Shown: positions 331 through 63,144 of the stretch, piece by piece
Layout: the number at the start of each line of letters is the position of its first letter
Numbering within the stretch: the first letter of the stretch is position 1
Source: Micractinium sp. NFX-FRZ
Taxonomy: Eukaryota; Chlorophyta; Trebouxiophyceae; Chlorellales; Chlorellaceae
Assembly: GCA_029339195.1 (NCBI GenBank)
Contig: JAPTJF010000088.1
Location: forward strand, 62,001-126,000
Direction of reading: 5' to 3'
Length of the DNA stretch: 64,000 nt
Position numbers and translations under genes: made by a program
Notes under the pieces: model-generated
What the model was told of the DNA's origin: nothing
What the model saw: the letters and a program-made list of their open reading frames with translations, nothing else
Databases searched by the model: none

Positions 331-1655
331 TCATTGCCCGACTGCCGCTGCTGCCGCCACTGCCTCCGCTGCCTGCTCTGCCTCAGCAATGCCATGCACA
401 TCCAGAATGCGCAGCGTAGTCAGCGGCTGCAGGCAGGTTGGGCAGATGCCGACAAGATGAGTATGCGGTTGTTTGTGCAGGTGGAGCCTCAGGTTCAAGC
501 ACCACACGCATCTCACTGACGGCTAGACAAGGACGCACAGCACAGGACACAGCACCCTGACTGCGAAGCAGCAGCAGAACAGCGCTACCACCTCTGCAAT
601 CCCACCTGGCGATGCCCACGCAGGCGCCGCGAGTTCTTCCGGCGCCGCTTGTGGAAGATGAGCACCTTGCCATCCAGGAACTGCTCCTGCAGCCAGCAAG
701 TAAAGAAATGCACTGTTAGGAGAGGCAGTGTTTGCTGCTACACAGCAAGAGAAGGTCTTGCCATCCATGATATGCTCCTGCAGCGGGGTGAAACGTACGC
801 AGGCAGGAGAAAAAGGGTGGAAGAACACGGGTGGAAGATAAGCACCTTGCTGTCCAGGAACTGCTCCTGCCTCAGTCAGGGGTAGAACACCGCAAGCGGA
901 AGGGCGGAGGGAAGGGTGGAGGGCTCAGCACAAGGGGTGCGCACTGGTTTGGCAGCGGTGTGTGCGCCTGCATGCGTTGAGACATACCCTGCTGCTACAG
1001 TGCAGACGAGCAAGCCTCCAGCTGAGCTGGCCCCCCCCCGATGCAGGCAACGACGGGCCCTACAGCGCACCCCAAGCACACTGCAGCACCACCGCGCACG
1101 AGAACCAACCGCTCCTGCACCCCTTGCCCCACGCACCTCCACGACCGCGGTGACGGCTGCCTCGGGAACATATGGCCTGCCAATCACCGTCTCTACCTGC
1201 GACCCCAGCAGCAGCACCCGGCGCAGCTCCAGCCGATCGTTCACGTCAACCCCCGACAGCTTCTCCACAACGACGACGTCGTTGGGGGTGACCTTGTACT
1301 GCGTGCCGCCCACTTCAACGACTGCAAACACGCGCTTGGGGGTCACGCTGTACTGCTCGCTAATGGGGTCTGCCAGGCGCACATAGACGTCTGGCAGCAC
1401 CGCTGCCTGCTGCGCTGCCGCCGCTGCCGCAGCCGCCGGCTCTGCTGCCGCCGCCGCTAGTGCTGAGGCGGCAAACCCATGGCGCTGCTGCGTGCTTCTC
1501 CAGGGGCTGCTGAGCTGCTGCTGCCGCCAGAGGTGCTGCTGCTGCTGCTGCCAGGCCGCTAGGGCGCAGGCTGGAGCCGCCTGCAGCTGCCACATGCCCT
1601 CGCAGGCGGCAGGCAGCAGCCGAGCCAGCGCTCGGGTGCCTGTTCTGAGCGCCAT
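331..1655 (-). CDS. organellar ribosomal protein bL21 (probably mitochondrial)
   Basis: Large-subunit ribosomal protein bL21, which binds 23S-type rRNA in an organellar ribosome. Three exons join in phase 0: 1655-1137, 686-606 and 426-331, giving 231 aa. The first 85 or so residues are Ala/Gln/Arg-rich and look like a targeting peptide. The bL21 core begins at FAVVEVGGTQYKV and continues through LLLGSQVETVIGRP. Exon 2 gives EQFLDGKVLIFHKRRRKN followed by RGHRQ, and exon 3 gives PLTTLRILDVHG. The LLLGS..T.IGRP wording resembles the plant mitochondrial form more than the plastid form; this is a judgement from memory. Intron 1 carries two damaged copies of the start of exon 2. A TGTAA signal lies 56 bases after the stop. 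The gene is divergent from the O-fucosyltransferase-like gene. Confidence 0.9.
756..783 (-). repeat. ghost copy of bL21 exon 2 start
   Basis: These 28 bases match 665-693 (the acceptor and start of bL21 exon 2) at about 24 positions. On the minus strand the copy still has CTGCAG followed by an exon-like stretch reading EHIMDGKTF, against EQFLDGKVL in the real exon. It lies inside bL21 intron 1. Confidence 0.75.
831..870 (-). repeat. second ghost copy of bL21 exon 2 start
   Basis: 37 of 40 bases are identical to 651-690, which encodes the start of bL21 exon 2. The minus strand reads CAG then an EQFLDSKVLIFH-like stretch, so the acceptor is retained. It has no matching donor and the frame runs on into unrelated sequence, so it looks like a decayed duplicate and not a working alternative exon. 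Confidence 0.8.
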
Positions 1656-2504
1656 GCTGGGCCGCAGGGCCGGCGCGAGCTACGCTGGACGTGCCGGAGT
1701 GCGGGGATGGCTCTTGCTGGCGCTGGCAGGCGGGTGGAGGCCAAATGAAGGAGACGCCTGAAAGCGATATAGATTTGCTGGGAGCACGCGCAGGGTTTGG
1801 GTTGAAGGCGGTGTACATTCAGAGTGTACTGCATGCAGAGCTCAGCGTGCAGGCACCCCAAGGAGTGGCAGGTCCGCGCTGTTTGCACCAATTCAATCCC
1901 CCATTCATTTCACCCGTGCAATTCACCTACAGCCTACTCTCCTTGGGGGCTGCCATTCTGAATCTCTTCAGACGGGGGCAAGAGGAGGCTATTTCACAGC
2001 CCTACAGCGGCGCCGTCGGGCAGTTTTGGTGGCCATCGACGGACTGGCAAAGGCCGGCAGGCAGCCAGGCCCTACGCGGCGGCTCGACGCAGATGCCGAG
2101 CGGGAAGTGAGTGGAGTCGAGACTCCAGCAGGCTTTAGCCCAGCTCCTTTCTCACCTGGAACTGTAGGAGTCGTTCCACGAGAGCCCCGAGTGAAGGTGA
2201 GCACCTAGGGCCAGGCGCCGCTGGCGCCGCGGCATCTACCGCCGCTATTAGCAGTCTACTTTGACCGGGCCGCCCTCCCATGACCACATTGCCTATTCAA
2301 TGGTGGAAGTTATATGATATGTACGAAAGCAATCTTTGGGGTACCTTGCTGCTCTCCCGTCGCCGCCGGCGCACATTGCCCCGCCGCCCTCCCGCTCTGC
2401 CGCACGTCGCGCAACGCTGCTCGGTTTTCTGGGCTGACCTCCCTGAATTCATAGCTCTTCAAAAACATTTCCCTCTGTTGATTTGCCGACTGCAGGCGTC
2501 AGCC
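1656..2504. promoter_or_regulatory. divergent intergenic region, bL21 / O-fucosyltransferase-like
   Basis: This gap separates two divergent start codons, so it should hold both promoters and 5' leaders. A plus-strand open stretch at 2026-2198 ends in GTGAAG before GTGAGC, a good donor. A CTGCAG acceptor lies at about 2490-2495. A spliced 5' leader for the downstream gene is therefore possible. No clear TATA box was recognised. Confidence 0.4.
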
Positions 2505-62300: not shown

Positions 62301-63144
62301 GTCTGTCACCGCCCGCACCAGCTTCTGATACTCCGTGTTGTTGCCAGACACCTCGGGGTCAGCCATGCGTGCCTGGACCGGGGGCAAGGACAGGAATGCG
62401 TATCGGCAAGGTGCACAGGCAGGGTGCCAGGGAAGGATCTGATATGAGAATGCATGCTGTTGCCAGACACCTTTGGAGTCTGCCCTGTGCAGTTGAGAGG
62501 GTCAATAAGAGGGAGGGGCACGTGCAGGGAGGAGACCATGCAGGCACGCAGGCGGGCAGGTGGGTTCGTTGGGAGGGCGCTCCTGCCACACACAGTCCCC
62601 CAGCGAGCTCTGCCAGAGCCGTTGAGACAAGGCCTGCAGCTGCCAATCGGCTGCTGGGCAGGCTTGGCACGCACGCAAGCACCTGCAGCTCCTTGAAGCT
62701 CTTCTCCGTGTCCTCCAGCTTGGCAAGCACATACTGGTCCTGCAGAGAGAGGACGGGAGAGGTGAAGAGCAGTGCCATGTAGCACCCTCTGGTGCTGCGG
62801 GCTGCCGCCGTGCTTTCACATGGATGCAAAGGCATGGCTGTGCCAGGAACAGAAGGCTGACCAGCGGCGCAGAAGCTCTTGATCAACAACGCGGCGGCAC
62901 GCAGGCGTCACTGCCGCCGCCGCCGCCACTTCTGCCAGTCGCGCAAGAACTCCCGTTACGGCTGCCACATTGCAGTGTCTTGCGCATACAAGAAAATTCA
63001 AGCTTCAGCCGGAGGAGAACGCACCGCTGCGGCCTGCACTTGCAGTGGTCGCCGCTGGGCTGTGTGCCGCCTGCTGCTGCCGCTGCGTGTGCTAGTGAAA
63101 GGCCGCACGGCCGTCGCCGCCCGCAGGCAAGCTTGCGCTTGCAT
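59352..63144 (-). CDS. plastid peptide chain release factor 1
   Basis: Class I release factor that ends translation at UAA and UAG in an organelle, probably the plastid. Eleven exons agree in phase: 63144-63025, 62739-62683, 62372-62213, 61951-61818, 61529-61446, 61260-61178, 60912-60765, 60380-60267, 60048-59960, 59766-59675, 59476-59352 (401 aa). Exon 1 is a 40-residue Ala/Arg/Ser-rich transit peptide ([16 protein letters not shown]...). The body has [39 protein letters not shown] and [20 protein letters not shown], with the PAT tripeptide typical of RF1 stop-codon reading. The peptidyl-transfer motif GGQ lies in [19 protein letters not shown] (about 275-277). [20 protein letters not shown] then [10 protein letters not shown] closes the domain. 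One ghost copy of the exon 3 start lies in intron 2. Confidence 0.95.
62458..62495 (-). repeat. ghost copy of RF1 exon 3 start
   Basis: TTGCCAGACACC then TTTGGAGTCTGCC resembles TTGCCAGACACCTCGGGGTC at 62341-62360. The minus strand retains GGTGTCTGGCAACA next to an AG. It lies in intron 2. Confidence 0.65.

What the first reader, a model, noticed from the sequence alone, without database searches (positions are those of the whole stretch)
331..63144. Introns across the window carry decayed copies of the edges of their own flanking exons
In at least seven genes, introns contain partial copies of the neighbouring exon edge: about 14 copies in all. Those upstream of an exon usually keep the 3' splice AG plus the start of the exon; those downstream keep the end of the exon plus the GT side. 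Examples: 37 of 40 bases at 831-870 versus 651-690, and 25 identical bases at 10298-10322 versus 10182-10206. Ordinary tandem duplication of whole exons would leave complete exons with both splice sites, which is mostly not what is seen. Known ideas include intron gain by tandem duplication of AGGT sites and introner elements, but these copies are exon-derived, local and different in each gene. The pattern suggests repeated boundary duplication that lengthens introns, or scars left by intron gain.
Basis: partly seen in the sequence, partly recalled or inferred. Interest (0 to 1): 0.88.

Follow-up and report, generated by a model that had tools for sequence, protein, structure and literature searches.

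The report
Exon-edge copies hidden inside introns
In this green-alga genome roughly one intron in ten carries a short, decaying copy of the edge of its own neighbouring exon, splice signal included, apparently left by local DNA copying errors that use the splice signals and the C-rich or G-rich intron ends as landing sites.

Summary
The window lies in a 66 Mb assembly; the one protein searched is closest to Chlorella and Micractinium. In 559 introns predicted in 314 kb, 41 contain a copy (score >= 20) of their own exon edge: 23 acceptor-side and 20 donor-side hits, against 11 of 22,360 comparisons with other genes' introns. A position-aware scan gives an excess of about 6-9% of introns per side. 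Of 67 complex local direct repeats, 55 touch a predicted splice junction. Copies hold the splice signal plus typically 20-70 nt of exon and decay like non-coding DNA. In 37 of 55 under 12 nt of adjoining intron is shared, even beside copies identical over 26-47 nt, so plain tandem duplication fails for most. Five of five ghost-intron segments searched were single-copy, and copies lie in C/T-rich or G-rich intron ends. I favour local templated insertion (MMBIR-like), with the splice signal as microhomology, over splice-site relocation, intron-gain scars or exon duplication. The mechanism is inferred; no relative's DNA or RNA-seq was available.

The parts
651..690 (-). real exon start (predicted exon 606-686) of a ribosomal protein L21 gene
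   Evidence: Pfam PF00829 on the predicted protein
742..784 (-). nearer ghost copy of that exon start, 18/24 at offset 91
831..870 (-). farther ghost copy, GCAG + exon start, 37/40 to 651-690, offset 180
3963..4004 (+). ghost of an exon end (32/42), real end at 3909, intron 3910-4245
9080..9140 (-). ghost of an exon end (source 9245-9303), GcvT/YgfZ-like gene 7196-12134
9477..9542 (-). weak ghost of an exon start (46/66), intron 9408-9775
10165..10236 (-). real acceptor and exon start of the GcvT/YgfZ-like gene
   Evidence: relatives P0001-P0003 read through this exon without an extra copy
10283..10352 (-). ghost with acceptor (TGTGCAG) and exon start, 25/25 core, offset 116
15935..15961 (+). 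farther ghost of the exon start at 16099, 92.6% over 27
15988..16029 (+). nearer ghost of the exon start at 16099, 86% over 42
32048..32079 (-). ghost of an exon end (source 32180-32211)
47061..47114 (-). ghost of an exon start (source 46949-47003), offset about 111
48777..48822 (-). ghost of an exon start (source 48689-48734), offset 88, TGCAG kept
52126..52167 (-). copy pair 52020-52064 / 52126-52167; gene model uncertain here, which copy is real not settled
52339..52393 (-). nearer ghost of the exon start 52216-52295, offset 102, CTTGCAG kept
52427..52506 (-). farther ghost of the exon start 52216-52295, offset 211, CCTGCAG kept
62445..62472 (-). ghost of an exon start (source 62326-62353), class-I release factor gene

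Best explanation
Short local templated insertions. During replication or break repair, a DNA 3' end lying in the C/T-rich 3' part (or, on the other strand, the G-rich 5' part) of an intron re-anneals out of register some tens of nt up to about 140 nt away at the intron's own end. It is held there by the splice motif (TGCAG or GTGAG/GTGGG) and tract similarity. It copies across the splice site into the exon for typically 20-70 nt, then is released and joined back. The result is a direct copy of splice motif plus exon edge inside the intron; the native intron end between copy and exon stays intact, so splicing continues. The copy is then free to decay. Shown: copy, anchoring, direct orientation, locality, non-coding decay, tract context, single-copy flanks in the five segments searched. 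Inferred: the copying event, its enzymes and the role of the splice motif as microhomology.
For: 55 of 67 complex local direct repeats touch a predicted splice junction, with a median of 8 nt intron and 36 nt exon. The shared intron part is, at the median, about what two unrelated splice sites share (acceptor 4.5 versus 4.0 nt; donor 6.5 versus 3.0; 16 and 12 ghosts). Single-copy flanks: three between-copy segments and two outer intron parts from four loci, 5 of 5, with a tool that skips common words. Both sides of the copy are tract-like: acceptor side C/T 0.69 and 0.73 against 0.57 and 0.60 expected (n 20); donor side G-C skew 0.25 and 0.35 against 0.04 and 0.09 (n 14). With the copy removed, the top tract quartile holds 11 of 19 acceptor-side and 10 of 14 donor-side ghosts. 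Mismatches hit codon positions almost evenly (108/686, 124/692, 125/685), with 9 stops and 39 gaps, and are not clustered (0 of 37 at p < 0.05). Weak extra similarity beyond the splice core fits tract homeology. Precedent: MMBIR templated insertions, in yeast copied from within 100 bp, microhomology 2-12 bp at 80% of junctions in one tumour set (passages of PMC8421209).
Against: Intron length minus the whole offset matches ghost-free introns (mean rank 0.505 and 0.551), while length minus the copy alone is too long (0.684 and 0.752). Ghost splice sites among less decayed copies score above the average cryptic site and towards real ones. Both fit a relocated splice site at least as well. Young ghosts share more intron than unrelated sites do (acceptor mean 12.6 versus 5.3, n 7, p 0.0008; donor 12.2 versus 4.4, n 6), so part of the intron is truly copied in some. 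Sites picked by microhomology alone in ghost-free introns lack the tract flanks that ghosts have (0.521 versus 0.684), so microhomology cannot be the only rule. The quartile test is not independent of the relocation rival. The model does not by itself explain why splice-anchored copies so outnumber others (12 of 67). The free-edge junction was not tested for microhomology. No relative shows an empty site.
Confidence: 0.42

Rival explanations
1. Splice-site relocation: the ghost is the former splice site. A second copy of the exon edge with a new intron end appeared about 120 nt inward, splicing moved to it, and the old edge was left behind.
For: Ghost flanks have intron-end composition out to 45 nt and still do against the background at the pre-insertion distance; ghost splice-site scores lie towards real ones; intron length minus offset equals that of ghost-free introns. 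Where two ghosts share a boundary the nearer one should be younger: it is better preserved in 3 of 7 cases (L032 5084, L028 6457, L028 8100), level in 2 (52286, 16099).
Against: The new intron end must come from somewhere, yet it is mostly unlike the old one and was single-copy in 3 of 3 searches; no second haplotype was seen for a 7.5 kb query. A divergent allele or paralogue as source would give synonymous-biased differences; these are only mildly biased (syn 0.207, non 0.155). Spacer starts are more tract-like than expected. In 2 of 7 double-ghost boundaries (RPL21, L028 7936) the farther ghost is the better preserved.
Confidence: 0.25
2. Plain tandem duplication of a 80-180 nt unit spanning the splice site, followed by decay.
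For: Some pairs look so: L014 6972-7043/7062-7133 (72 of 90 nt), L028 7682/7793 (99 of 111 nt), L030 8385 (97 of 100). 18 of 55 junction-touching repeats share 12-36 nt of intron. The distance range is the same.
Against: In most of the least decayed ghosts the exon part is 93-100% alike while the adjoining intron is unrelated beyond a few nt. Tails score >= 12 in only 2 of 21 acceptor-side and 2 of 16 donor-side cases. Repeat length is mostly far below the spacing.
Confidence: 0.1
3. RNA-templated capture: pre-mRNA fragments or splicing intermediates bounded near splice sites serve as template for repair of breaks in the same intron.
For: Copies end at or just beyond spliceosome-defined junctions on both exon sides: intron part of 2 nt or more in 52 of 55; only 6 of 43 hits begin more than 6 nt inside the exon. 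Strictly own, adjacent exon.
Against: No copy joining two exons was seen in the alignments shown, whose output was cut, and this was not searched for systematically; some copies carry 12-36 nt of intron; a DNA model needs no RNA step.
Confidence: 0.12
4. Ghosts are maintained for a function, such as decoy splice sites tuning intron retention.
For: Splice dinucleotide kept in 24 of 37 ghosts.
Against: About what neutral decay at 17% divergence would leave (my estimate); mismatches are flat over codon positions and unclustered; offsets show no frame preference by eye.
Confidence: 0.05

Closest known systems
MMBIR-type templated insertions / short-range template switching (PMC8421209 passages; PMC7954356 abstract and outline)
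   Different: Here the copies are direct, mostly anchored at splice junctions, and inherited across the sampled genome as a feature of introns
Internal and flanking direct repeats of new Daphnia introns from staggered break repair (PMC4202315 passages)
   Same: Break repair leaves direct repeats, some of adjacent exon ends, and is proposed to lengthen introns
   Different: Daphnia exon-derived repeats are 4-12 bp at the opposite end of a new intron; here typically 20-70 nt, near the same exon
Intron gain by tandem duplication of AGGT (recalled)
   Same: Exon-derived sequence ends up in an intron
   Different: Would place the copies at the intron ends opposite to those seen
Introners (PMC9860276 passages)
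   Same: Add introns in diverse eukaryotes, green algae among them
   Different: Introners are similar to each other across genes, with 3-9 bp target site duplications where present; these copies are gene-specific

Membership tests
MMBIR-like templated insertion | insert copied from a nearby template | tested here: met
   copy-to-source offset median about 120 nt; non-adjacent exon edges 2 of 5,820
MMBIR-like templated insertion | microhomology at a junction | tested here: inconclusive
   anchored edge mostly shares a few to 36 nt, at the median about what two unrelated splice sites share, more in young ghosts; free edge not tested
MMBIR-like templated insertion | template switching seen in new mutations or mutants | not testable with these tools
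   needs mutation accumulation or strains
plain tandem duplication | whole unit between copies repeated | tested here: not met
   repeat length shorter than spacing in nearly all and flanks unlike in most, with a few exceptions such as L014 7008 and L030 8385
AGGT intron gain | intron 5' end copies downstream exon and 3' end copies upstream exon | tested here: not met
   copies lie near their own exon; possible exceptions in short predicted introns, L014 9414-9504 and L028 6458-6553, rest on doubtful gene models
introner | intron sequence shared between many unrelated introns | tested here: not met
   5 of 5 ghost-intron segments and 2 of 2 paralogue introns gave only themselves; the tool skips very common words, and most ghost introns were not searched genome-wide

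The most novel reading that the evidence does not exclude
The copying is coupled to splicing itself: pre-mRNA fragments or splicing intermediates bounded by spliceosome contacts template repair in the same intron, so introns grow by recording the edges of their own exons and gain a steady supply of pseudo splice sites.
Probability: 0.12. Interest if true: 0.85.

Novelty: new variant of a known kind. Interest (0 to 1): 0.55.

Why it matters
It shows a mutational bias at exon-intron junctions strong enough to mark roughly a tenth of the sampled introns. It would be a source of intron lengthening, of decoy splice sites and of dated neutral sequence (each ghost can be compared with its constrained source). 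It also corrupts gene prediction: my finder took ghosts for exons in RPL21 and in a phosphoglycerate mutase gene. Intron growth by local copying becomes testable in a tractable algal group.

Tried and rejected
Divergent-allele or paralogue donor of the new intron end: rejected as the main model because differences between ghost and source are only mildly synonymous-biased, and the closest pair of a tandem kinase-like family on contig 23 (exons 95.5% alike) keeps recognisable intron ends (first 30 nt 0.70-0.97, last 30 nt 0.67-0.93, null 0.45), although blocks inside two of its four introns are unrelated. That family holds no ghost above score 14 in 28 introns, so it could not date one. Spacer copied from elsewhere: not found in 3 of 3. 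Spacer as an inverted local copy: reverse score to its own neighbourhood 12.0 equals another locus 12.2; the forward score is slightly higher (14.3 versus 11.9, maximum 34 versus 19), which I put down to nested ghosts and the minority with copied tails. Gene-conversion patches: no clustering in 37 ghosts, although whole-copy conversion is not excluded. Microhomology alone as site rule: not enough. Branch-point motif as discriminator: no clear motif. Paralogues of the L013 gene: too diverged, own-edge scores only 7-15. Literature: ten searches, seen as listings, showed no paper describing this pattern; the Coccomyxa genome paper was searched for terms only. The Chlorella variabilis genome paper is not held; I have a vague, unchecked recollection that it remarks on sequence repeated between introns and exons, so it should be read before any claim of priority.

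Full report
WHAT WAS CHECKED. The two quoted matches are exact. Self-comparison of the window returns them among 12 direct repeats under 200 nt apart, against 2 inverted ones (32 bits or more). The window is contig 88, positions 62001-126000, of an unnamed 66.07 Mb, 838-contig genome. One predicted protein of the window was searched; it is closest to Chlorella vulgaris (78% identity), C. sorokiniana and Micractinium conductrix (72% each), so this is a green alga near the Chlorellaceae.

GENE MODELS. No annotation was at hand, so I wrote a hidden-Markov gene finder and trained it without supervision on the window plus 200 kb from 20 other contigs. It converged on 552 introns (median 232 nt) with TGCAG|G acceptors and CAG|GTGAG donors. 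Predicted genes are recognisable: ribosomal protein L21, class-I release factor, cyclic-nucleotide-binding domains, and a phosphoglycerate mutase in L018 (four proteins given). For the GcvT/YgfZ-like gene the relatives P0001-P0003 run through the exon that starts at 10229 without the ghost segment, so there the ghost is not coding. The finder took the RPL21 ghost for an exon, so such cases are lost from the counts.

FREQUENCY. With 50 kb more the sample is 314 kb and 559 introns. Exon edges (up to 100 nt) matched their own intron at score >= 20 in 20 (upstream exon) and 23 (downstream exon) cases, 41 introns in all; introns of other genes gave 4 and 7 of 11,180. Reversed and reverse-complemented controls gave 0 and 1 of 1,066 in the first 533 introns. 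Non-adjacent edges of the same gene gave 2 of 5,820; the far edge of adjacent exons gave 14 of 1,000, which I read as overlap of the 100-nt windows in short exons. An ungapped 30-nt scan at 60-260 nt (489 and 491 introns) gives an excess of 7.9-8.5% on the acceptor side and 6.5-7.9% on the donor side at >= 17-18 of 30, strongest at 80-160 nt; at 14 or below the excess is lost in noise.

ANATOMY. The list of complex direct repeats within 400 nt, made without using gene models, has 67 pairs (three inverted pairs). Of these, 31 are exon-intron, 23 include a boundary segment, 10 are intron-intron and 3 exon-exon. 55 of 67 touch a predicted junction, holding a median of 8 nt of intron and 36 nt of exon; the intron part is 2 nt or more in 52 of 55. 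Offsets run from 77 to 242 nt, median about 120 on both sides. The adjoining intron is mostly not part of the copy: paired tails score 7.5 against 6.4 in mismatched pairs on the acceptor side and 8.1 against 5.7 on the donor side. L020 2624-2670 is identical over 47 nt to 2710-2756 although the sequences next to it are unrelated. 18 of 55 do share 12-36 nt of intron, for example L014 6972, L016 7944, L028 9019 and L030 2224, and the least decayed ghosts share more than unrelated splice sites do.

AGE AND DECAY. Mismatches between ghost and exon are nearly even over codon positions (0.157, 0.179, 0.182), with 9 stops and 39 gaps. Among 12 ghosts at >= 88% identity the synonymous rate is 0.108 and the nonsynonymous 0.060; over 40 ghosts it is 0.207 and 0.155. 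So the copies were close to identical at birth and decay as non-coding DNA, while the source exon adds few changes. Mismatches are not clustered (0 of 37).

WHICH PART IS NEW? Two readings compete. (a) The exon edge alone was inserted into an existing intron. (b) The ghost is the former splice site, and copy plus spacer were added. For (b): ghost flanks look like intron ends to 45 nt, splice scores of less decayed ghosts lie between cryptic and real ones (acceptor means 4.3 ghost, 3.6 best cryptic, 6.3 real; donor 4.4, 3.4, 4.4), and intron length minus offset equals that of ghost-free introns (ranks 0.505 and 0.551, versus 0.684 and 0.752 for length minus copy). For (a): the spacer is single-copy in 3 of 3 genome searches and the outer part in 2 of 2, so (b) lacks a source for its new intron end. 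The spacer's far end, next to the copy, is also tract-like (C/T 0.73 against 0.60; skew 0.35 against 0.09), as expected if the copy landed inside a long tract but not under (b). Seven boundaries with two copies were compared. Under (b) the nearer should be younger: RPL21 (18/24 near, 22/24 far) and L028 7936 (17 and 19) say otherwise, 52286 and 16099 are level, and L032 5084, L028 6457 and L028 8100 agree with (b). I prefer (a), at 0.42 against 0.25.

MECHANISM. A 3' end in the intron-end tract re-annealing at the splice motif of the same intron, extending into the exon and returning, is what MMBIR-type templated insertion would do: insertions copied from within 100 bp in yeast, microhomology 2-12 bp, imperfect matches allowed (passages of PMC8421209). 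Short-range template switching is widespread in great apes (abstract of PMC7954356). The directness and the equal numbers on both sides fit, because a C/T-rich 3' end can mis-anneal only in the same orientation (inference). Weak extra similarity beyond the splice core supports tract homeology (0.392 versus 0.317, p 0.0005; 0.386 versus 0.313, p 0.005). Microhomology alone does not pick such sites. What stays unexplained is why the splice motif so dominates as anchor.

KNOWN OR NEW. Daphnia neointrons carry exon-end repeats of 4-12 bp at the opposite intron end (passages of PMC4202315); introners share sequence between introns and, where seen, have 3-9 bp target duplications (passages of PMC9860276). 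Neither fits. Ten paper searches showed no description, but the most relevant genome paper was not available.

LIMITS. Gene models are mine and unverified by RNA; the sample is about 0.5% of the genome; no relative's DNA was available; counts per side are about 20; several flank tests share the same ghosts and are not independent.

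Noticed in passing
L031, L034-L040 (contig 23, 40950-77392, and contig 39): Kinase-like family, six copies in tandem on contig 23 and one on contig 39, whose introns are mosaics: similar blocks next to unrelated blocks while exons stay 82-95% alike; introns 0 and 1 of copy c6 gave only themselves in genome searches.
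   Followed up: partly
L021:6401-6530: Perfect 65-nt head-to-tail duplication inside a predicted intron with no spacer, a fresh plain tandem duplication for contrast.
   Followed up: no
L023:5194-5327 and L032:5454-5560: Short copy-spacer-copy pairs (27-28 nt, 93-96%) wholly inside predicted introns, not at recognised splice sites.
   Followed up: no
ghost-free introns of 200 nt or more in window and L009-L033: Introns are strongly polarised: G-rich towards the 5' end and C/T-rich towards the 3' end over about 100 nt each.
   Followed up: partly
L018:3420-10000: One phosphoglycerate mutase gene carries six ghosts above the threshold, so their density varies between genes.
   Followed up: no
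window 16486-16669 and 35242-35322: CAG/CTG-type triplet runs, largely in predicted coding sequence.
   Followed up: no
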